NCBI GenBank assembly: GCA_011364965.1
Contig: RDOB01000002.1
Location: 124,001-188,000, forward strand
Source of the DNA: Candidatus Heimdallarchaeota archaeon
GTDB lineage: Archaea; Asgardarchaeota; Heimdallarchaeia; Hodarchaeales; Hodarchaeaceae
Length of the DNA stretch: 64,000 nucleotides
Reading direction: 5' to 3'
In this document: positions 49,269-64,000 of the stretch, piece by piece
Position numbering within the stretch: position 1 is the stretch's first letter
How the letters are laid out: each line of letters starts with the position of its first letter
Notes under the pieces: generated by a model
The model's database searches: none
The model's input: only the letters and a program-made list of their open reading frames with translations
Told to the model about the DNA's origin: nothing
Translations under genes and position numbers: made by a program

Positions 49269-51764
49269 ATGCCTTATCATCGCAAACTATCGTCAGAGGT
49301 GTTTCCTCGAAAATTATTCTGGGAAACTTTTATTGAATTGGACCATTCAGTCGAAAAAAAACTCTTAATCGAAATTTTACAAATATCGAAGAAAAGAAAT
49401 CTCATTTTTGAGGTTTTGGATGAACAAGGTTGGTCGGAATGGAAAGATAACCCAGACAAATTAGTAAAAGGTATTGTTCCACTATTAATTGCATTATTTT
49501 GTGATAGAATAACAATTTCGATTTCTATATTTAAAAAATCCTTTCAATTTGAAGATTTAGTAGCTCAAATGCGAAGAGATATTGGGAGTAGTTCTTCAAA
49601 TAAAAAAATTCTGAGTTTTTTCAATTTAGTGTCCAAGCTTTTGGATCAATCTCCAGAAAATGATTCAGAGTATCCAATAACTTGTCTTTCATATTTTCCT
49701 TTGAATAGAATTCTACATATTCTTTTTGAGTCCGAAGATGAATGTTTACTTGGATTAATTCTAATTCAAGAGTTACTACACCATAGTGATCAACAATACC
49801 TTTTACTTCCCTTTCTATACGAAAATGGGGTTCCCAGTCGATTACAACAGCTTCAAGGACAAGTTTTTACTCCACCAGAAATAACTAATTTTCTAGCAAA
49901 ATTTTCATTATCAAAAGCTGATTTTCGCAAAATAATTGATCCTGCTTGCGGAACGGGACTATTTTTATTAGCAGCTTTGGATTATATTTCTCATTCTCAT
50001 CAGAGGACTTCGTTGAAATATATAATTGGAATTGAGAAAGATCCATACTTAGGATCGATTACAAAAAGTGCTATAAATTACTTTTTATATAAAAATCCAT
50101 CAATGAGCGTTAAGAGTAGTATTATTATACAAGATTTCTTTTGTTTAAATAATGAAGAAGAAAAAAGGCTGAAATCTGATGAAAAGGTTATTTATTATGT
50201 GAATCCTCCCTATACTCGACAAGAGAATATTCCAATGCAATATAAAACCTTGATTCAAACCATTATTCAGAAAGATTTAATTTTTTTTTCTAAGACTGGA
50301 GAAAATGTAAGAAAAGAATTTTCACGACGCTCTGGATTATATGCTTATTTCTTGCTTCATATTGCTGGAAAATTAAAAGAAAATGACTCTATCGGCCTTA
50401 TTATACCCAATTCTTGGCTAGATGTGGACTATGGTCTCTATATTAGACAATTACTTTATAAATACTTTCATATTCATACAATTATTATGACGACAAAGGA
50501 GAAGCTCATTCCAGCAGCTGAAGTTAATACAGTAATTCTATATGTAATTCGAGATTCCAAGAAGTCGATAAAGCAAGTAAACTACTATTTAATAGAGAGA
50601 AAAAGTGATCTAGCATTAATTTCCCTTGGTATGAGGGAAAAGATCCCTTTTCATAAGAAATTTGATCAACATGTATTAGATCCTCCAAAAAAATGGAATG
50701 CAATTTTAAAAGCCCCAAATTGTTATTTGAATCTCTTAAATCTATTAAATGATAAATTAATGCCCCTTAAAAGCATTGCATCTATAAAAAGAGGTTTTAC
50801 AACTGGAGCGAATGATTTTTTTTATCTAGGTAAACCTGGATGTGAAAATAAATATTTTCGATCGGAATGGGATTCTGAAAGTGGGGACCTTCTTCTATAT
50901 CTGAGAGATGATAGAATTCAAGAATTTTATCGTTTGGGATGGACTATAAAGGAGCCCATGTTCAGGATTGAGAAAGAATACTGGATGCATTCATGTAGGA
51001 ATAAATCAAAGGGATTAAAAATAAAATTTGTAGATTCCAAAGAAGTAGAATGGATTCCCAATTATGTAGTTAAATCCCCTAAAGAACTACAAAAGTTTGA
51101 AATCAACGAGTCTGAAATTAACTACGTTGTATTAATTATTTGTCACTCAATTTCAATTGAAAAGGGAGTGCAAGAATATATTCATTGGGGAGAAAAATGG
51201 GTTCCTTCCTCGGGAAGAAAATATCCTCTTAGGCCTACTTGTAAAACGAGAGCGAATTGGTTTTGTTTACCACTCTTAAAAAAAGAATCATTTCCTATTT
51301 TGGGAATGATGACTATCAATGATCGATTTGCATTTTTTTACAACCCCTCGAAATATTATTTTGATGCGAGATTTTATGGCATTCAATTGACAAATTCCCT
51401 TGATGAAATTGCTTTTATTTTTCTTTTCTTGAATTCTATCGTGGCAGCATTTCAATTGGAATTATTGGGAAGGAGTAATTTAGGAGAAGGAGGACTTGAC
51501 ATCAAAGTTTATGAATATGAAGATTTAATGATTCCCAACATTAATTTAATAAATGGAAATGCTGTTTTAATATCAAAAAAGATCTTTAAAGAAACAATCC
51601 ATAAAAGACCCCTTTCGATTCGTGAGGTAGATTTTGAAGATGAATTTATCAAGGTTAATCTTCTATTCAACGTTCAACTAGATCCTGAGGTATTAAAAAA
51701 TTTAAAAACCGAACTAGAAACTTTAGTTCGATTAAGACTAAGCAAAGCAAAATCATTTCAATAA
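49269..51764 (+). CDS. Eco57I-like N6-adenine DNA methyltransferase (831 aa)
   Basis: GQVFTPPEITNFLAKF, motif I IIDPACGTGLFLLAAL, motif IV VNPPY, C-terminal specificity-like GFTTGANDFFYL. Confidence 0.88.
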   Translation: MPYHRKLSSEVFPRKLFWETFIELDHSVEKKLLIEILQISKKRNLIFEVLDEQGWSEWKDNPDKLVKGIVPLLIALFCDRITISISIFKKSFQFEDLVAQMRRDIGSSSSNKKILSFFNLVSKLLDQSPENDSEYPITCLSYFPLNRILHILFESEDECLLGLILIQELLHHSDQQYLLLPFLYENGVPSRLQQLQGQVFTPPEITNFLAKFSLSKADFRKIIDPACGTGLFLLAALDYISHSHQRTSLKYIIGIEKDPYLGSITKSAINYFLYKNPSMSVKSSIIIQDFFCLNNEEEKRLKSDEKVIYYVNPPYTRQENIPMQYKTLIQTIIQKDLIFFSKTGENVRKEFSRRSGLYAYFLLHIAGKLKENDSIGLIIPNSWLDVDYGLYIRQLLYKYFHIHTIIMTTKEKLIPAAEVNTVILYVIRDSKKSIKQVNYYLIERKSDLALISLGMREKIPFHKKFDQHVLDPPKKWNAILKAPNCYLNLLNLLNDKLMPLKSIASIKRGFTTGANDFFYLGKPGCENKYFRSEWDSESGDLLLYLRDDRIQEFYRLGWTIKEPMFRIEKEYWMHSCRNKSKGLKIKFVDSKEVEWIPNYVVKSPKELQKFEINESEINYVVLIICHSISIEKGVQEYIHWGEKWVPSSGRKYPLRPTCKTRANWFCLPLLKKESFPILGMMTINDRFAFFYNPSKYYFDARFYGIQLTNSLDEIAFIFLFLNSIVAAFQLELLGRSNLGEGGLDIKVYEYEDLMIPNINLINGNAVLISKKIFKETIHKRPLSIREVDFEDEFIKVNLLFNVQLDPEVLKNLKTELETLVRLRLSKAKSFQ

Positions 51765-51788
51765 AAGAAATGAAAAGGTTTTGAATTT

Positions 51789-54008
51789 ATGGTAAATATA
51801 AGTGTCGTTGAAAGAAAGCAAAAGGGACAATTTTTCACCAAAACTGAGATTGCAGTAAAAGTTGTAACGGAAATTTGCAATGACTTAATCGGGTATTTAG
51901 ATCAAGGTAATAAGAAAGACTATTCTATGTTTATAAACAAAATATTAAACATTAAGTTAATTGATCCCGCAATGGGTGATGGAGTTTTTCTTGTTGTTGC
52001 TTTAGAATATTTTACGAAAATCATTCAAGATATCTGGGGAGAAATAGTGAAAGATAATAATGTTCGTGCAAAGAATGATTTTAAAGAACGATTCAGGATA
52101 AATGGAATGAATAATGCTTTAACTGAATTAGATCGAGACCTGATTTGTCTTAAAATTCTATCTGAAATGATTTATGGAGTTGAAGTAGATCGTTTTATCT
52201 ATGAAAAAGCTATTCAAAATATTTTAGGTTTGTTTAATGTTCCTGAAGTTATAGAGATGGCAAAAAAACTCGTGAAAATTAAAATTAAACAAGGGAACTC
52301 TCTTATTTCTCCTTTACCATTAGAATTTAAAAAAAGTTTCAAATTTCTTTCTTTATTTAAATCAGAAATTAATTTAATTGTGAAAAATAGAGAAGCAATC
52401 TCTAAATTAATACTTGAAGGTTCTGATGTTTTAATTAAGAGAAAATTTATTGAAAACTCCCAAATTCGTAATTTAGTTATATCTAAGCTTAAAGGAGAAT
52501 TTTCAGATAGTAGTCAACTGCTTTACTTAACTTTGTTAAAGAAAAAAGAACAAATTCCTTTTTTTTGGGAGTTAGAATATCCTGAAGTCTTTTTATCAAA
52601 TAAATTTGGATTTGATGTGGTAATAGGTAATCCCCCTTGGGATAAATGGAAACTTTATGACAGAGAATGGCTAGGTTCGACTGTTCTTTCTTCTCCTGAA
52701 TTAATTAAGGAAACAATCAATGGTGCTCCATCAGAGTCTAAATTAAAATATCTTGAACTAAAAGAGTATTATAAAGAAACCTCAAAATACTTTAATACAT
52801 GCTATAAATGGCAACCTGGGGAAAAAAATCTTTATAAATTATTTCTGGAACGTTTTTATGATCTTACCTCTGAAATGGGTTATTTTGGAATAATTATTCC
52901 GAGTGGAATTCTAGGGGAATATTTTAGTAAATCATTACGAAAAATGCTTTTAGAGAATGTAAAATTAATATCTGTTACAGAAATTGTATCTAATAAGGAA
53001 ATTTTCTCTGAGGTTGAACCAGGGATTAGTATTTCAGTAATACTGGCACAGAAGAATACACCTGATGTTACTTTTCTCTTTTCTAAAGATATTCATTCTT
53101 TAGATGATTTTAAACAAGCTCAAATGCGACTAATAGAAATAAACAATACTAATCATGTTCGAATGAATCGTAATGAAATAATATCTACTTCCCCTCATTA
53201 TATCATTCCATCAATACGTAATAACAAGGAATTAGCAGTCACAAGAAAAATTATTTCATTTCCATCGTTAACGTCTAAAGAATGGAAATGTAAGACATCA
53301 CGTGGTTTAGACATGACCAATGATCGTAATATGTTAACAAAGGATCCAAACGCATATCCTTTGGTTGAAGGCAGACATTTAGTCAGATTGGGGTATGATG
53401 ATAAACACCCTCGTTTTTGGATTCAATCACCTCAAAGATATTTTGAAAAATTCCCTTTTTGGAGAAGAACTTTCATTGGATGGAAAAATTTCTCTGGTAA
53501 TCATAGAAGAAGAAGAATGCGAATAGCTATTTTCCCAAAATCCACTTTCATATCTAATAGCATTTTATGTCTTTATGATTTTCCTGAGCAGGAAGATATT
53601 GAATATTATTTAGCTGGGGTATTATGTTCCGTTCCTTTTGAATTTCGAATTCGACAGATTTGTTATGGATTAAATATCAATCAATTTATAATCAAAAAGA
53701 TGAATATCCCAGCTTATGAAATGAAAAATCCTTTGCACAAAGCACTAGTTAATTTAATCAAAGACTTCGAACCCATTGGGATAAACTGGGCTTATAGAAA
53801 AATGGAGGCCTCCTCCTCTTCCGCAAAATCAGCTCTCGAGAAAGATTATTATCTTTATATAGCCCAAATAGATGCATTGGTTGCTCTAATTTATAATTTA
53901 ACAAAAGAAGAGTTTATTGTTACGCTTCAAGCACATCAAAGGTTAGAATCTTCCTACACAGAAGCAGCAGTGAATTCTTATACAAAATTCTCCCAAAATT
54001 TTAATTGA
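51789..54008 (+). CDS. Eco57I-like N6-adenine DNA methyltransferase (739 aa)
   Basis: KGQFFTKTEIAVKVV, motif I LIDPAMGDGVFLVVAL, motif IV FDVVIGNPPWDKW. Confidence 0.87.
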   Translation: MVNISVVERKQKGQFFTKTEIAVKVVTEICNDLIGYLDQGNKKDYSMFINKILNIKLIDPAMGDGVFLVVALEYFTKIIQDIWGEIVKDNNVRAKNDFKERFRINGMNNALTELDRDLICLKILSEMIYGVEVDRFIYEKAIQNILGLFNVPEVIEMAKKLVKIKIKQGNSLISPLPLEFKKSFKFLSLFKSEINLIVKNREAISKLILEGSDVLIKRKFIENSQIRNLVISKLKGEFSDSSQLLYLTLLKKKEQIPFFWELEYPEVFLSNKFGFDVVIGNPPWDKWKLYDREWLGSTVLSSPELIKETINGAPSESKLKYLELKEYYKETSKYFNTCYKWQPGEKNLYKLFLERFYDLTSEMGYFGIIIPSGILGEYFSKSLRKMLLENVKLISVTEIVSNKEIFSEVEPGISISVILAQKNTPDVTFLFSKDIHSLDDFKQAQMRLIEINNTNHVRMNRNEIISTSPHYIIPSIRNNKELAVTRKIISFPSLTSKEWKCKTSRGLDMTNDRNMLTKDPNAYPLVEGRHLVRLGYDDKHPRFWIQSPQRYFEKFPFWRRTFIGWKNFSGNHRRRRMRIAIFPKSTFISNSILCLYDFPEQEDIEYYLAGVLCSVPFEFRIRQICYGLNINQFIIKKMNIPAYEMKNPLHKALVNLIKDFEPIGINWAYRKMEASSSSAKSALEKDYYLYIAQIDALVALIYNLTKEEFIVTLQAHQRLESSYTEAAVNSYTKFSQNFN

Positions 54009-54033: not shown

Positions 54034-56661
54034 TTATGCTTGTGAAGATAGAAAATCTTTGATATAAGCGATCTCTAACTCAGTAATTTTAAATAATTCA
54101 TAGATTATTTTATTGATTTTATCAAACTCACCAATAAATTTATTCGAGTTATTGAACATCTTCCTTACTAAATTTACCAAATACGAATAATTCTTTGAAT
54201 TTTTCATCAAAAAAATTGGAAAGTGTTCAATTTGACGTGGATAAAATTCATACACGTTGCCTAAATTTTTAATAGAGTTGAGTGCATAGAAAGTGAGAAG
54301 CTCTGAATTGAGCAATGAAAGCAAATAGTAAAGTATATCTTCCTCAGTTCGATATTCATCTTTGGGAATAAGCCAAATCACATCCTTTGAAGAGAGCGAA
54401 CCTAGTTGATCTAAAGCAAAGGTATTTTTTTTGGATTTATATGGTGAGACGATTTTTGGACGTTCCCAATCCATTGTATTTCTTTCATCACCTTTTCTCC
54501 ACAAAAAATATTTTTGAACCCTCGATCTGTCAAATAACAGCTCTTTATTATTTCTTAGATAATCCATGAGTTTAACATCTTCTAAAATATCCTTTTCTTT
54601 ATAAAAGGGAGCAAAAATCACTTTTCTTTTTTTATATTCAACAAAATAGTTTTTAATGTCTTTACCTTTGATCCATGTTCTCAAATTAGAATCTTTTATT
54701 CCCATCTCATTTGAAAAATAGTCAGGTTTGTTTGTTGTGAAAACTTTGTCACAACCAGTCTCCACTCCTTTACTTATATCAAAAAATTGATTCAGGGTAA
54801 AGTTTGAAGCTTCTCTAATCTTTTTAAGAATTTTAAGAGTCATTTCATTATGAAATATCCATTTTTGTGGTTTTAATGAATTTTGATGTACTTGTAAGAA
54901 AGAATCATAATTCAAATCATTTTTCGGAGTATAGCGAAAAACAGCGATAGAATTTGTTTTCATCTCCTTTTTTTTCAGTATTAATACAATATTACTTATT
55001 TGTACTTCATTGAATAAGGAAATATTCAAAAAATCGTGGATTTCAAGTATTTGAGCAGAATTTTGAATAAATTCTCGTGTTCTAGCTGCATAAACGCTAT
55101 GCAGTAAATATTTTGGCAAAATAAATCCCAATAATCCTCTTAAGGGTTTTAAAGCTTCAATGCTCCTAACCAGAAAAAAGTAGGAAATATCATTATTTCC
55201 TGTGTAGATTTCTGGATATATAAAGCTCAATCTTTTTCTCAATAGTAGAGGAAGATCTGTTAGAGCAATAAAAGGTGGATTTCCGAGAATAATATCAAAT
55301 TTAGGATTTTTTCCAATTTTGAAGTCTATCCAATGAAATAAATTCGTAATTGTTGAAGGTTGTAGATGAGGTTGAAGAATAGATAGCTCATTAGCCTCTC
55401 CCCTAGTCATTGGTGATGAAAAAACAGCATATAGAGTAGTATTTGTTTGAAATGTATTTGAAAACCTTATTTTTGTTAAGGAAATGTCATCTAGTTTTAA
55501 TTTTAATGATGTCCATCTAATACGATCTCCTTCAAAAATAAGATATCGAAATTTAGGAATTTTTCTGAATATTTCTAATAATCCCGAAATTGTATTTTCA
55601 TTATCGAATTCATTATTATTAACATTATTAAAAGTGATTCTATAAACGGGATACTTCAATTCTAAATTCTTATTAAATAAATCATCTCGAGAGCATTCTA
55701 TGTTATCATTTTCTTCTCTCTGGTTTTCATTATTTTGAAATCCAAATAATGAGTTCCCTTTATATATATTGCATCGAAAAGGAGTTTCTTTAGAGTTACT
55801 CGAATCAAAACTCCATAACCATAATTTTAATCTTGAAATAAGAATTGCTACTGTATCTATATCAATACCAAATAAAATATTTTCAACAATCATTTTTTTA
55901 ATCGTTATTTCATCAGTTGGGGTAGAAAAAGATTCAAGCATTTCATTAATTATATTTCCACAGGCAATTAGGAAAATTGAACTTCCAGTAGCTGGATCCA
56001 GTATTTTTAAATTTGAAATTTGCTTTATTATATGTCTATTATCTGAGGAATCCTCTAAGTGAATTCTAGATATCCAAGAATTCACCATTTTTTCCGAAAG
56101 TTTAAGAGCAAACCAATATGGAGTGTAAATTTGGCCAAAACTTTCTATGTCGGTCTTATATGATCTTGAAATGAACTTTACATAATCAAATATAGAAAAA
56201 TCTATTACATTACTTTCTTGATCATATTCTTTAGTATGGTCGTTGATCCAGACGTAATTTTCCTTAAATTCTCTTGCAATGTTTTTCCAATTGATTTTAT
56301 TCAATTTAACTTGATCTACATAATCATAATGGTCAAAAAGATTAAAACAAACCTCTTTTGGTATTATGGAATTTATAAAATTTAAAAAATCCTTTTCTTG
56401 AAACAAAATTTCCTCCCAGGTCGTAATCTCTCTATTTTTCTTATCTATTTTATTTGGATCCAAAAAAAATAATGAGATAAATTGTAAGAGGATTATTTTG
56501 GAATAATCCATTTGTAAATGGCTTGGAATGATAACATCTGCAATATTTTCATATAGATTTTCTAATAGTATGCGAATACTTCTTGGTAGTTGCTTAATGC
56601 CCTTATTTCTGTCCTTAAGACAAAATATTAGCTTTTCCTCCAACCAAGAGAATCTAATCAT
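54034..56661 (-). CDS. Eco57I-like N6-adenine DNA methyltransferase (875 aa)
   Basis: FGQIYTPYWFALKLSEKMV, motif I ILDPATGSSIFLIACG, motif IV FDIILGNPPFIAL, TaqI-type specificity region FFDISKGVETGCDKVFTTN. Confidence 0.88.
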   Translation of the reverse strand: MIRFSWLEEKLIFCLKDRNKGIKQLPRSIRILLENLYENIADVIIPSHLQMDYSKIILLQFISLFFLDPNKIDKKNREITTWEEILFQEKDFLNFINSIIPKEVCFNLFDHYDYVDQVKLNKINWKNIAREFKENYVWINDHTKEYDQESNVIDFSIFDYVKFISRSYKTDIESFGQIYTPYWFALKLSEKMVNSWISRIHLEDSSDNRHIIKQISNLKILDPATGSSIFLIACGNIINEMLESFSTPTDEITIKKMIVENILFGIDIDTVAILISRLKLWLWSFDSSNSKETPFRCNIYKGNSLFGFQNNENQREENDNIECSRDDLFNKNLELKYPVYRITFNNVNNNEFDNENTISGLLEIFRKIPKFRYLIFEGDRIRWTSLKLKLDDISLTKIRFSNTFQTNTTLYAVFSSPMTRGEANELSILQPHLQPSTITNLFHWIDFKIGKNPKFDIILGNPPFIALTDLPLLLRKRLSFIYPEIYTGNNDISYFFLVRSIEALKPLRGLLGFILPKYLLHSVYAARTREFIQNSAQILEIHDFLNISLFNEVQISNIVLILKKKEMKTNSIAVFRYTPKNDLNYDSFLQVHQNSLKPQKWIFHNEMTLKILKKIREASNFTLNQFFDISKGVETGCDKVFTTNKPDYFSNEMGIKDSNLRTWIKGKDIKNYFVEYKKRKVIFAPFYKEKDILEDVKLMDYLRNNKELLFDRSRVQKYFLWRKGDERNTMDWERPKIVSPYKSKKNTFALDQLGSLSSKDVIWLIPKDEYRTEEDILYYLLSLLNSELLTFYALNSIKNLGNVYEFYPRQIEHFPIFLMKNSKNYSYLVNLVRKMFNNSNKFIGEFDKINKIIYELFKITELEIAYIKDFLSSQA

Positions 56662-56680: not shown

Positions 56681-57142
56681 TTAGTCTCTTATCTTTTCAA
56701 ATATTATTTTTATCTTCCCAATTCCCTGATTTATTAGTTTTCGGGGCAAGTTTGGTTTAGTTTCCTCCACAAGAATATCTCCTTGCTCAATTAAGGTAAT
56801 GAAAACAGTAGTAATATTCTCTTCTACCCAGTTATCTAATTCCTCTTTATTCACAGAGGGGAAAGCTGAATTTGATTGCAGAGCTTGCTCGAATACCATT
56901 TGATGAATTCTCCTGTTTTGGTTCTCCTTCAGATCGTACCATAGATTCCGAATTAGCTTTCTTTCTTTTACTCGTAATGCTTCTATCTTCTGTAATATTG
57001 TCCATACTTTGGATGGGACTATAACAGACTCTTTTTGTTTCTTTTTGGACATTGTTGCTCTCTCTACTTCTTTTCGCTCTATATTGACCCCGTTGACTTC
57101 ATCAAAGTGTTTATCGTCTGAGGAGATCTTCCAATGTTTCAA
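56681..57142 (-). CDS. Hypothetical helical protein, 153 aa, upstream partner of the third methyltransferase
   Basis: ORF 19 bp upstream of the 875-aa methyltransferase, same strand; no recognised family. Confidence 0.65.
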   Translation of the reverse strand: MKHWKISSDDKHFDEVNGVNIERKEVERATMSKKKQKESVIVPSKVWTILQKIEALRVKERKLIRNLWYDLKENQNRRIHQMVFEQALQSNSAFPSVNKEELDNWVEENITTVFITLIEQGDILVEETKPNLPRKLINQGIGKIKIIFEKIRD

Positions 57143-57192: not shown

Positions 57193-57456
57193 TTAGTAGA
57201 TATAATCCATTTTTCTTTTTTTTACATAATAACGATGGATAATGAATAGATAGAAGAAAAGTACTATACCCATACCGATCATGAGAAATGATAATGAAAT
57301 CTTAAACCAAGTAGCATCTGGGATTATGGGAAGATCTTCAAATAATTGATTAGGAATAAAGAAAGGAAATATTACTCCAGTAATAATAAGAATAAAAGCT
57401 GCGATACTCCCAAAAAATTCTGTTCGATTTCTTTGTAGGAAGCGACGAAAGGCCAT
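57193..57456 (-). CDS. Small membrane protein, 87 aa
   Basis: Two hydrophobic helices, complete ORF. Confidence 0.55.
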   Translation of the reverse strand: MAFRRFLQRNRTEFFGSIAAFILIITGVIFPFFIPNQLFEDLPIIPDATWFKISLSFLMIGMGIVLFFYLFIIHRYYVKKRKMDYIY

Positions 57457-58023: not shown

Positions 58024-61000
58024 ATGGCATCCTCACAAAGAAGAAACGAAACATTTTTAGGTTATAGATCGTGGTTTGATGCGTTTCGATTTAATGAAAG
58101 AATCTCCCTTCCAATTTTTATTCTTGATTATCAAACATCAAGTTTTTGGAAGGAAAATGAGGAGACAATTAATGAGTATGAAACTGATCAAAATCACTCG
58201 CGATCCATGCTAATAAATGGTATACAAATTTTCTTCCTTGATGAAAATCATCAAAAACGTAAAGCATTTTTACGTCATGAACCTTACTTTTATCTCTTAC
58301 TTGAAAAAGACCTTTCAAAGGAACATCTCAATCGAATCATTTCACAAATCTATCAAATAGGAGAAAATCACGTTCAACAAATAGAGGAGAAGAATTACTA
58401 CGATGCTGCTGATCTTACATTCCTTGTTTCCAAGTCATTTCTAAAGATCACCGTTGATCATCCCGGTTCTGTTCCTAAATTACGAGATAAATGTGAAGCA
58501 TTAAATGGAGTAATCGAATGGCGAGAAGCAGATGTATTATTTCATCATAGAACTGCAATAGACCATAATTTACGCGTAGGATATTGGTATCAAGCTGAAA
58601 TCCGAGGTGGAGAAATTCAATCTATTTATCATATAAATAATAAAGCACCACCTCAATTAAAAATACTAGCATTCGATATAGAAACTGCTTTTGAAACAAC
58701 AAGAGAACCTAATCCGAACCGCGATGAAATATCAATGATTTCATTATTTACTGGAGATAGGAACTATCTTCTAGTAAATTCGTCTGTGGTTGAAACCAAG
58801 GATATCAGAAATATTGATATACTCCTAAGGTACGCTGATAAAGAACATAAGAAGCCTTGGGTGGATTGGCGATATTCAAATGATACTTTTGAAGCGCCTG
58901 AACATATTGAAAAGTATTATTTTAATATCCAGCTCTTTGATAACGAGCGAGAAATTTTACAGGCATTTTATCAAGTGATCAGAGACTATCAACCTGATGT
59001 TCTTGCTGATTTTTTTGGGGGAAGATTTGATATCCCTTTTCTTTCTGTGAGGTCAGAGCTTAACAATTTGTCTTTGGAAAGGGAAACTGGATTTAAGATT
59101 GTTTTTAAAATAGGTACCGGTAAAAGATCAAACGAAAAGACTGATTTGAAGAACAATTATACTCCTAATAGCATAGATTATGTTGAAGGAGCAGGAATTA
59201 TACATCTAGATGCCTTCCTATTTAATGAGAAATACAGTTACCTTCCCAAGAAGGATTTAGGTTTAAAACAGAGTGTTGAGAAAAAACTCAAAATTATTCC
59301 AATAGGTAGAGAAGCATTATTTGCTATCGAAGAAAATCCTGCCGAAGCTGCTGCATATGCGGGATGTGATGGATATATTTCGTGGAAATATGTTAAGGAA
59401 ATTGTCCTTGATTTTTTCATCTCTATGGGACAGATGTTTCCCGTTCCTGCTTCAGAGTTGTTATCCCGAAGATCAGGCTCTTTGGATGACTTATTGATCG
59501 ATGCAGAAAATTTCCAGCATGGAATTGTCAGTAAAAGAAAAATCTCTTCCAAAATAATTGAATCTTTTTCGCCTAAACTTGTGATAAACAATCTTGCTTA
59601 TACAGGTGGACTAGTTGAAGCTAGACGTCCTGGAATTTTCAGAAGTGATATTTTCTATGATTTTAAATCAGAGAAAGAAGCTTTAGATGAATTAAAGATT
59701 GCAATTGAAAAAGTAATACGAAAAGAAAGTATGGAATTAAATAAAAAGATTATAAAGGAGGAATTTGAGAAACAAGTCCTCTCTGAGCTTGGAGATGTGG
59801 TTATTGAGTATTCAGAAGATCCTTCTGAGATCTTATCACAAATTGAATCTGGAATGGTAAGAAATGGTGTTCCAAGAGCGAAATTAAAGATCCAGTTGAA
59901 TAAAATTCGGGATATATTAGAAAATATATCTGCATATCACCCTGAAGATGTGGAAAATATTATAGATGAGGTATTTCAAGCACTAGACAAATTAAAGCTT
60001 TCTAATGACAAAACAAAGTTAATTGGAGTTCATGTTGACGTTACAAGTATGTACCCATCTCAAATTCGTCAATATAAACTTCAACCTTCAGGAATTGTAC
60101 CTTTAACGAAATGCCAAACATGTGATTTATACGAAAAGGATGAAAGTTGCCTTTTTGACGGAGATTGGGTTATAAAAATTTCATCACAGCGTCCTTGTCG
60201 ATTTAAGGTGGAAGGTTCTAGTAAATGTGATCCCTCAGTTTGCAAAGCGGAGAATGAACTAAAATGTAAAAGGTATCAACCTTTGCAAGATTCACTTGGA
60301 CGATCTCAAGAGATTTATACCTTTAATGGAGAAAAAACAGAAGCTTATACCAGAAGAGGTGACCAATTAATACAAGTTCCAATAAGTGAAACCTATTTGG
60401 GTTTAACAACTGAACATGATCTTTTCATTTCTGTTCAACAGTGGTTACGAAGAAATGTAGAGGCAACTCAATTAACAACTAAATTGGACAAGAACTATTT
60501 TGATATATTTGAAGATCAACCTCCTGATTTTGAACTTCCTCCCAATACGTTCATGAGTATTGATACTAGAACGAAAAAAATTAGTATATTGTTATCTGTA
60601 AATTCTCGGGTGTGCCAAAAAGCATATAATTTTGTTGCCAGAATTATGGATGATTTTTTCAATACAAGGGTAAAGCATAAGTTAGAGGCCCAAAGACTTA
60701 AACAGGTTATTTCTCAAAGGAAATCTGCAAATTTAGCTATTCCTTCTGAATTAACTAGACTTCAAAAATTCCATGATAGCACACAATTAGGAATGAAAGT
60801 TCCTTTAAATAGTATATACGGACTTTTAGGTATGAAGGGAGGTGTAAGAAATGCTAGTACGCCCTGCGCTGGAATTACAACAAAATTGTCAGCAGATTTA
60901 ATCCATTGGGCTGCAGAAGAGCTAGAGTACGTTGGTTTAGTTACAGAATTAGATACTGATGGTATCTGGTTATGGGTACCCCAAGATTTTCCGCTTTTCT

Positions 61001-62427
61001 TTAAAGTTTGCCTTTCCAATCCTAATGTTAAGAACAGTAAGAAGCAATTTGAAGTAAGTCTAATCGACAAAATTCTCAACGAAAAGGTCAAGAAATTTTC
61101 TCAGAACGATAATTATTGGGTAAATGACGGGCATTGTATTAGTCGATCGCGAAAGAACTTAATTAAATTTGAACAAGACGGCCCCTATGATTTTCAGTTT
61201 GTCATGGGAAAAAAGAAATATATAATTTATAATTATGAAAATAATGAATGGCAAGAAAAAGAGATAACTGGATTAGAATCAAAAAGAGCAGACTTTTCAA
61301 AATTACAGAAATATTTTCAAGAAAAGATCATCAATAGCTATCTAGAGGACTATGATCCGCAAAATCCCATTACTTTAGAAGAGCTTTATCAAAATGCAGA
61401 TAAAATGGCTCAGAAAATAAAAGAAGAAATTTATAGCGGAACTATTGATCCTAGTTATTTCGTAAAACCAAAAGCTATCAACAAACCTTTAAGTGCTTAC
61501 AAATCCAAACTTCCCCAAGTGAACGCAGCTTATATCCTTCGAGACCTTGGTTTTTCTGTGGATCCAGGTACAAGGATCCAGATGTTAAATTTAAAAGGTA
61601 ATCATGTAATCCCTCGACAAGTTTTTGATTTTGATTTCAAGAAAATAAAGGAAGTTCTTGTTAAGCATGCAATTGCTACATTGAGTTTCATGCTGGGAGA
61701 ACTATCGACAAAAGAGGACCTAATGAAATTAATTGATGTGAATCAGTACTCAGAAGATCTTTTTGGTCCCGGAAGAATTTATGATAGAATGATAAAATAT
61801 CCAATGGAAATTCAACAAGTTTCGAGTAGTGCACAAACAACTTTGAATCTAAAATCGAAAATCAGAAGTAAGAAGACTGAGACTGATAGTAATTTTGAAG
61901 ATGAAGGCCCCATTACTGATGAGAAAGAAAATTTAAAAAATGAAAAAGCATTACCACATCTTAAACCAAAACCGAGACAAAAAAGAGGGATTCGCAGAAA
62001 GAAAAAGAGGCAGAGGAATGAAGCTCAGCCTATTGCACTTGATGCTTTACTTGAACCTTCACAATCAGTTAATAAGGGAAATAAAATTGAAATCAAAGAG
62101 AATGAGTATATAACAAGAGAAACCGAGGCCAAAAAAGTAATCCAAATAAGGGGCTCCTCCGATAAAGTAGAATCTGAAGTTTTTAGAGAAAATTCCCAGA
62201 ATAAATCTCTAAGTAAAGATGCTTTGGTTTCCACTGATGAAATTTCTGAGTTAGAATCAGATGAGATTTTTAATAATGGATCTGGCAATGGTAAGAGTGC
62301 AAAAAGTCTAGAGTTAGGAACGTTGGAGGAAGAGCTAATTGTCTGCTCGGAATGTGGGGCGTTAGTAAGCCCGCGAGAAATTACTAATGAAGGGTGTATT
62401 TTCTGTGGAGGAGAATCTTTAATCTAA
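58024..62427 (+). CDS. B-family DNA polymerase, Pol epsilon-like, with 3'-5' exonuclease and C-terminal zinc ribbon
   Basis: Exo I [9 protein letters not shown], Exo II [26 protein letters not shown], Exo III YAGCDGY; motif A [23 protein letters not shown]; motif B [25 protein letters not shown]; motif C [10 protein letters not shown]; C-terminal CSECG...CIFCG. Confidence 0.96.
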   Translation: [1467 protein letters not shown]

Positions 62428-62660: not shown

Positions 62661-64000
62661 ATGGAAAATATAGCTAATTTACAATCAATTGGATCACTTG
62701 AAAATTTTGCCTTAAATAAAACTGAACAATTTTTAAAACCCCGAACACCTTTAGATTTTCTATTTTTAGTATTATGCATATTATGGTGGATAATTGCAGT
62801 TGTTTTTCCAAGTACCCCAATTTTTCGAGGTACAATATTTAGTTTTGCTATTGTTGTGTTTTTCCTGATCCCTATATACATTCTTTTTAATAAAGAAGGG
62901 CATACCATGGCTTCTCCCCTGAACCGTGCCTTCAAACTTCTATTATTTTATCTATTGATTAATTTCTTTATTCCCTCTTCTAATATTCCCAATTTTCTTC
63001 CTCCAAGTATTCCGATAACGTATGGTGAGATAGAAAGGACAATTGTATGTCTATTAATACCTCTCACTATGTTAATAAAAGCCTTTGCCCTGGATACTCT
63101 GCGAATTGGATATTTATTTTACATTCAAAGCATTATACGAGGTTTCTGGACTGCATTTATTATTTTGTTCATTATGAAGGGGATTCAACTCTTTATTCCT
63201 ACTCCTCTAATAAATTTCGATTTTGATCTCTTTCTGCTACTAGCTTTTGGATTATATTTATTTGGATCAGTGTTACCAGGAGTACCAAAACAAATATCTT
63301 TTGATGCTAGTTCATTCATTAACCAGTATCAGGCGTTACAAACAAGAATGGAAAGAATTCGTGACGCATTACTTACATCAGCAATTACTTTGTTAATTTT
63401 CTTGTGGTTACAATGGATTAATTTATCAAATCGGGAATTATTTCAATATATCGCTTTTATTTGTTTAGTTATGGGTATTTTATTAATATTTGCACCCAAA
63501 AAGAAAACACAGAATGGATTAAATTCACTCTTAAGTTCTCTTTCCCAAAAGGGAAATTTTATTGATCCAAAAAGTCAGCTTGGTTCCAAGGTACAAGAAT
63601 ATGCAAAAAGCATACAAGCAGTAGAATTTAATAAACCAAATCAAGTATATTCGATCCCTTCTGAATCCCTTAAGTTAATAAGTAAAGGTAAAACCTCAAT
63701 TAGCGCTAATAAAGGTACTTTAGCTGTTCCAACTGTAACAGATAAGGGAACAGCTCTGGTACTAATGGGAAAATCAGAAATGACAACTGAAGAAGGTGAA
63801 AAGGTGCTTGGAGAAACAACAACAATATGGCTTCCACCAGAGGAATGGGATAGAGTAAAAGTAAACTTACAGCCCAAAAAGATGGAAGAAATTCTTCAAA
63901 CTGACCTTAAAGAAGCTGGTCTTGAGAATTTTAATGATTTAGTCAATAAATCCAAACACGCTTTAGAGGAGTTAAAATCCTGGAAAGGGCCCGAAAATAT
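62661..64000 (+). CDS. Multi-pass membrane protein with C-terminal soluble domain, truncated by the right edge
   Basis: Frame from ATG 62661 (MENIANLQSIGSLENFALNKTEQFLKPRTPLDFLFLVLCILWWIIAVVF...) stays open to the window end. Absent from the ORF track, which lists only antisense ORFs here. Confidence 0.8.
   Translation, partial: MENIANLQSIGSLENFALNKTEQFLKPRTPLDFLFLVLCILWWIIAVVFPSTPIFRGTIFSFAIVVFFLIPIYILFNKEGHTMASPLNRAFKLLLFYLLINFFIPSSNIPNFLPPSIPITYGEIERTIVCLLIPLTMLIKAFALDTLRIGYLFYIQSIIRGFWTAFIILFIMKGIQLFIPTPLINFDFDLFLLLAFGLYLFGSVLPGVPKQISFDASSFINQYQALQTRMERIRDALLTSAITLLIFLWLQWINLSNRELFQYIAFICLVMGILLIFAPKKKTQNGLNSLLSSLSQKGNFIDPKSQLGSKVQEYAKSIQAVEFNKPNQVYSIPSESLKLISKGKTSISANKGTLAVPTVTDKGTALVLMGKSEMTTEEGEKVLGETTTIWLPPEEWDRVKVNLQPKKMEEILQTDLKEAGLENFNDLVNKSKHALEELKSWKGPEN

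What the first reader, a model, noticed from the sequence alone, without database searches (positions are those of the whole stretch)
60112..60615. Pol epsilon [4Fe-4S] (CysX) ligand set conserved in the archaeal polymerase
Seen: KCQTCDLYEKDESC gives Cys697, Cys700 and Cys709 (CxxC-x8-C) just after motif A, and a distant VCQKAYNF supplies Cys864. From memory, yeast/human Pol epsilon has CATCDFNRPGKTC / CAACDFNKPGANC (the same CxxC-x8-C spacing) followed by VCQREN. Those four cysteines were shown to bind a [4Fe-4S] cluster in the catalytic domain. Finding all four in an archaeal enzyme suggests the cluster predates eukaryotes. I do not know whether this has been described.
Basis: partly seen in the sequence, partly recalled or inferred. 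Interest (0 to 1): 0.8.

Follow-up and report, generated by a model that had tools for sequence, protein, structure and literature searches.

The report
Archaeal Pol epsilon with iron-sulfur site
A DNA polymerase found only in the Hodarchaeales, archaea proposed as close relatives of eukaryotes, carries the exact four cysteines that hold an iron-sulfur cluster in our own leading-strand polymerase (Pol epsilon), although published work calls that cluster unique to Pol epsilon; it also has a second conserved set of four cysteines that Pol epsilon lacks.

Summary
Window ORF 58024-62427 (+, 1467 aa) encodes a B-family polymerase whose best solved relative by far is Pol epsilon (309 bits by profile; next, Pyrococcus/Thermococcus enzymes, about 100). 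C697, C700, C709 and C864 align with yeast C665/C668/C677/C763, with identical spacing from motif A (+25, +28, +37). All four are invariant in every one of 13 Hodarchaeales genomes that carry the gene (38-64% identity), out of 14 searched in the order; 214 other Asgard genomes have no orthologue. The polymerase itself is already known (group B10 of Kazlauskas 2020; 'epsilon subunit' of Hodarchaeales, Eme 2023). In the texts I could read, however, CysX is said to occur only in Pol epsilon, so its presence in B10 looks unreported. Best explanation: a [4Fe-4S] cluster at the base of a P-domain-like insertion, as in eukaryotes. Iron occupancy is inferred. That the cluster predates eukaryotes is likely but unproven; transfer from proto-eukaryotes has been argued. 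AlphaFold models were too poor to use.

The parts
58024..62427 (+). Pol epsilon-like B-family DNA polymerase (group B10), 1467 aa
   Evidence: ORF; Pfam DNA_pol_B_exo1 8.7e-24 and DNA_pol_B 1.5e-14; Pol epsilon top in PDB, 201 bits by phmmer and 309 bits by profile
60037..60060 (+). Motif A DVTSMYPS (catalytic D672), invariant
   Evidence: alignment A1; catalytic role by homology
60112..60150 (+). CysX part 1: C697, C700, C709 (CxxC-x8-C)
60613..60615 (+). CysX part 2: C864 in SRVCQK, aligned with yeast C763 and human C747
60151..60612 (+). P-domain-equivalent insertion between C709 and C864 (154 residues; 85 in yeast, 83 in human)
   Evidence: spacing; fold not modelled
60196..60267 (+). Second invariant Cys4 set: C725, C735, C740, C748 (C-x9-C-x4-C-x7-C), absent from yeast and human Pol epsilon; metal unknown
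60946..60963 (+). Motif C ELDTDG (E975, D977, D979), Pol epsilon-type
   Evidence: sequence; invariant in A1; conserved glutamate described as a synapomorphy of PolEpsilonN, B10 and G3 in PMC7544198
62344..62406 (+). C-terminal Cys4 (C1441, C1444, C1458, C1461), probable zinc ribbon; the single CTD motif of group B10
   Evidence: weak zinc-ribbon hits below cut-off; B10 description in PMC7544198

Best explanation
The gene encodes an active, proofreading B-family polymerase of the Pol epsilon N lineage (archaeal group B10, confined to Hodarchaeales). C697, C700, C709 and C864 together ligate one [4Fe-4S] cluster where an insertion (the P-domain counterpart) leaves the palm. By analogy with yeast and human Pol epsilon, the cluster pins the base of that insertion, so that the insertion embraces the nascent duplex and the enzyme can bind primer-template; oxidation or loss of the cluster would lower synthesis. 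Shown here: orthology, invariance, spacing, position. Inferred: cluster identity, P-domain fold, effect on DNA binding. The cluster site most likely existed in the common ancestor of B10 and eukaryotic Pol epsilon N.
For: Pol epsilon is the top PDB relative by a wide margin. All four Cys fall on the known ligands, with identical motif A spacing, P = 2.7e-6 for the coincidence. Invariant in all 11 aligned orthologues plus L015/L016, down to 38% identity. Found in 13 of 14 Hodarchaeales genomes and in none of 214 other Asgard genomes, by both single-sequence and profile search. Neighbouring genes are conserved around the orthologues within the genus, so this is a stable chromosomal gene. SufBD-type Fe-S assembly is in the same genome. 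In human Pol epsilon, C651/C654/C663/C747 hold [4Fe-4S] (PMC11638069); loss of the cluster abolishes DNA binding (PMC9581978), and its oxidation in yeast inhibits synthesis reversibly (PMC8499023).
Against: No metal data for any B10 enzyme. The insertion is longer than in Pol epsilon and holds four more invariant Cys, so ligand sharing or zinc is possible.
Confidence: 0.85

Rival explanations
1. The CysX cysteines of the archaeal enzyme bind zinc rather than an iron-sulfur cluster: the same geometry, but a purely structural site.
For: Cys4 sites can take either metal, and mis-incorporation is documented for the C-terminal zinc site of Pol epsilon (PMC9581978). The archaeal protein has a C-terminal Cys4 that is probably zinc.
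Against: Both eukaryotic homologues with structures carry [4Fe-4S] at exactly these residues, and the ligand spacing is identical.
Confidence: 0.1
2. [quoted passage not shown] (This is a rival to the evolutionary claim only, and is compatible with the [4Fe-4S] mechanism.)
For: Restricted to one order: 13 of 228 Asgard genomes. Argued explicitly by Forterre 2025 (PMC12395588), who also reports a Lokiarchaeum homologue.
Against: Deep divergence within the order (38-64%), a conserved neighbourhood, extra archaeal-only features (second Cys4, single CTD Cys4, no Pol epsilon C module), and no match in phage, viral or plasmid collections apart from a 28.7% exonuclease-region hit to another PolB. Kazlauskas 2020 infers the opposite direction.
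Confidence: 0.3
3. Ligands are shared or swapped: the cluster is held by a mix of the CysX triplet and the second set (C725/C735/C740/C748), and C864 is not a ligand.
For: Eight invariant Cys lie in this stretch, seven of them within 52 residues.
Against: C864 is invariant, sits in an RVCQ context aligned to yeast C763, and the second set varies in spacing while the CysX triplet does not.
Confidence: 0.05

Closest known systems
Eukaryotic DNA polymerase epsilon, catalytic N-terminal module (yeast Pol2 1-1228, human POLE 1-1200)
   Same: Exo and pol domains, DTDG-type motif C, CysX at identical spacing, VCQ context, an insertion between the third and fourth CysX Cys
   Different: No second inactive PolB module, no CysA/CysB pair; longer insertion with an extra invariant Cys4; about 34% identity in the aligned polymerase columns
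Archaeal PolB group B10 (Heimdallarchaea LC3/B3; Kazlauskas 2020, PMC7544198)
   Same: Same taxon, sister of Pol epsilon N, one C-terminal metal-binding motif
   Different: The paper states CysX is in Pol epsilon orthologues but not in other PolBs; here it is invariant in the Hodarchaeales set. Its supplements were not readable, and membership was not tested with its own HMM
PolB1 (Sulfolobus 1S5J) and PolB3 (KOD, Pyrococcus)
   Same: A Cys shortly after motif A and one just before the fingers helix align with the first and fourth CysX Cys
   Different: No CxxC-x8-C, no insertion; in hyperthermophile PolB3 palm cysteines are proposed to form disulfides (PMC6051491)

Membership tests
Pol epsilon catalytic module (PolEpsilonN) | B-family exo + pol domains with Pol epsilon as nearest relative | tested here: met
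   Pfam; PDB searches: 309 bits against about 100 for the next family
Pol epsilon catalytic module (PolEpsilonN) | CysX: four Cys at CxxC-x8-C plus distal VCQ | tested here: met
Pol epsilon catalytic module (PolEpsilonN) | [4Fe-4S] actually bound | not testable with these tools
   needs purified protein
Pol epsilon catalytic module (PolEpsilonN) | P-domain fold inserted between palm and fingers | tested here: inconclusive
   Insertion of 154 residues at the right place; models at pLDDT about 30 are meaningless
Full eukaryotic Pol epsilon catalytic subunit | Second, inactivated exo-pol module after the catalytic one | tested here: not met
   ORF ends at 1467 aa; after about residue 1270 only a variable linker and one Cys4
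Full eukaryotic Pol epsilon catalytic subunit | C-terminal CysA and CysB pair | tested here: not met
   only one Cys4, 1441-1461
Archaeal PolB group B10 | Heimdallarchaeial PolB, nearest to PolEpsilonN, with one C-terminal Cys4 | tested here: met
   L005 is Candidatus Hodarchaeum mangrovi; the sister-group tree is from PMC7544198 and was not rebuilt, and the B10 HMM itself was not run

The most novel reading that the evidence does not exclude
The Hodarchaeal polymerase carries two iron-sulfur clusters side by side at the palm/P-domain junction: the CysX cluster shared with eukaryotes and a second one on C725/C735/C740/C748. Eukaryotic Pol epsilon would then keep only one cluster of an originally two-cluster processivity domain, and the CysX site itself would have grown out of an older Cys pair at the same place in archaeal PolBs.
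Probability: 0.25. Interest if true: 0.8.

Novelty: new variant of a known kind. Interest (0 to 1): 0.6.

Why it matters
The [4Fe-4S] cluster in Pol epsilon is essential in yeast and needed for DNA binding by the human enzyme, yet its origin is unexplained and it is described as unique to Pol epsilon. An archaeal enzyme with the same ligands, and with no attached inactive module, allows direct tests of what the cluster does in a simpler protein, whether it predates eukaryotes, and how the P-domain arose. It also gives a Pol epsilon-type shared character, finer than overall sequence similarity, linking Hodarchaeales and eukaryotes, which bears on the debate over Hodarchaeal ancestry versus lateral transfer.

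Tried and rejected
Chance similarity of a Cys-rich stretch: rejected (P = 2.7e-6 for the coincidence, invariance in 13 genomes). Structure prediction: two AlphaFold jobs with the window plus L005 (A2, A3) gave mean pLDDT 29.7 and 31.8; discarded, not interpreted, and no fold search run. Viral, phage and plasmid sources: no relative except a 28.7% exonuclease-region hit in a Methanomethylovorans plasmid. Pfam scan of the insertion with the second Cys4: nothing meaningful. Feng et al. 2025 (Nat Ecol Evol, Asgard replication machinery) and ter Beek 2019 are not in the library, so prior mention of CysX in B10 there cannot be excluded. A broad eukaryote tree could not be made: only yeast and human Pol epsilon sequences appeared among the PDB hits.

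Full report
What is there. ORF 58024-62427 on the + strand encodes 1467 aa. Pfam finds a B-family exonuclease (residues 167-412) and polymerase domain. By eye, the exonuclease carboxylates (D218, E220, D336, D449) and polymerase aspartates (D672; D977/D979) are present, so an active proofreading polymerase is predicted.

Is it the Pol epsilon site? The best PDB relatives are all Pol epsilon: 201 bits by phmmer and 309 bits with a profile of 11 Hodarchaeal orthologues, against about 60 and 100 bits for Pyrococcus/Thermococcus PolB3 enzymes. In both alignments C697/C700/C709 fall on yeast CASC...C and C864 on VCQ. Distances from the motif A aspartate are +25/+28/+37 in both; human Pol epsilon has C at 0/+3/+12/+96 from its first Cys, which are C651/C654/C663/C747, modelled with [4Fe-4S] by cryo-EM (PMC11638069). 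Over 322 aligned columns with 7 Cys on each side, four coincide (P = 2.7e-6).

Conservation. Of 14 Hodarchaeales genomes, 13 have the gene; the missing one is a 1.4 Mb assembly at 71% estimated completeness. The other 214 Asgard genomes have none, by single-sequence or profile search; the weak hits there are other PolBs without the motif. In the 11-row alignment (38-62% identity to the window) exactly eight Cys columns are fully invariant, C697, C700, C709, C725, C735, C740, C748 and C864, plus four C-terminal ones (1441, 1444, 1458, 1461) where sequence exists. Every other Cys in the protein varies. Two more orthologues (L015, L016), split by inteins, have the same motif. Flanking genes are shared between the window and orthologous loci of the genus, so it is a stable chromosomal gene.

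The conserved cysteines form three sets of four: CysX; a second set C725/C735/C740/C748 inside the insertion between C709 and C864; and the C-terminal set. The second set has variable inner spacing (middle gap x2 in L009, x4 in most, x6 in L017 and L018) and is absent from yeast and human. Its metal is unknown; Pfam gives nothing. The insertion is 154 residues against 85 in yeast and 83 in human, and occupies the P-domain position.

A possible older layer. When motif A-to-fingers segments of B10, Pol epsilon, PolB1 and PolB3 are aligned by MAFFT, the first CysX Cys lines up with a Cys of PolB1/KOD PolB3, and the fourth with the Cys of WVC/IVC/RFC in those enzymes. In hyperthermophile PolB3 palm cysteines are proposed to form disulfides (PMC6051491; that it is the C428-C442 pair is from memory). 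The Pol epsilon/B10 site may thus have grown at an old Cys pair, with the insertion placed between the two. This is inference from a short alignment.

How it most likely works. [quoted passage not shown] without it the human enzyme does not bind primer-template (PMC9581978), and its oxidation in yeast lowers synthesis reversibly (PMC8499023). The same residues in the same frame imply the same role here (confidence 0.85). The genome has SufBD-type assembly. It also keeps PolD large and small subunits, so B10 probably works beside PolD, not instead of it; the division of labour is unknown. The own DP1 has PGERD where its sisters have PGEHD, in line with the published remark that DP1 decays in some B10 carriers.

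Known and new. The polymerase is known: group B10, sister of PolEpsilonN (PMC7544198), 'epsilon DNA polymerase subunit only found in Hodarchaeales' (PMC10307638), discussed as lateral transfer (PMC12395588). But PMC7544198 says P-domain and CysX are in Pol epsilon orthologues and not in other PolBs, and PMC9581978 calls the cluster unique to Pol epsilon. I found no text in the library that reports CysX in B10. Feng et al. 2025 and all supplements could not be read. It is not a full Pol epsilon: no inactive second module and one CTD Cys4, both tested and not met.

Limits. Structure prediction failed (mean pLDDT 29.7 and 31.8) because only the window and L005 were admissible; no distance test was possible. 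Direction of inheritance between B10 and eukaryotes was not tested.

Noticed in passing
L016/L026 (G010:C117) and L015/L027 (G011:C130): Two Hodarchaeal B10 polymerases carry inteins in the active site: one in motif B (PLNSI | ... HN | SVYG), one in motif C (TELD | ... CHN | TDGVW).
   Followed up: partly
L036 and L038 (G059, G060): Another Asgard PolB has an intein-like insertion right after motif A (LDFR | CHPKGT...).
   Followed up: no
L001:1252-3954:- (own genome, PolB1-like): C-x-H-x2-C-x12-C after motif A ending in WVCQ; may be a metal or disulfide site at the same place as CysX.
   Followed up: partly
L047 (own genome DP1, G000:C12:307775-308392): DP1 phosphoesterase motif reads PGERD where sister genomes read PGEHD, a likely loss of a metal-binding His.
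   Followed up: partly
window 49269-54008 (+) and 54034-56661 (-): Three consecutive large genes upstream of the polymerase look like Eco57I/N6 adenine methylase-type restriction-modification proteins (the first two by Pfam, the third by eye).
   Followed up: no
window 62661-63998 (+), 56681-57142 (-), 57193-57456 (-): Uncharacterised neighbours (a multi-membrane-span protein and two small proteins) whose synteny with the polymerase is conserved across the genus.
   Followed up: partly
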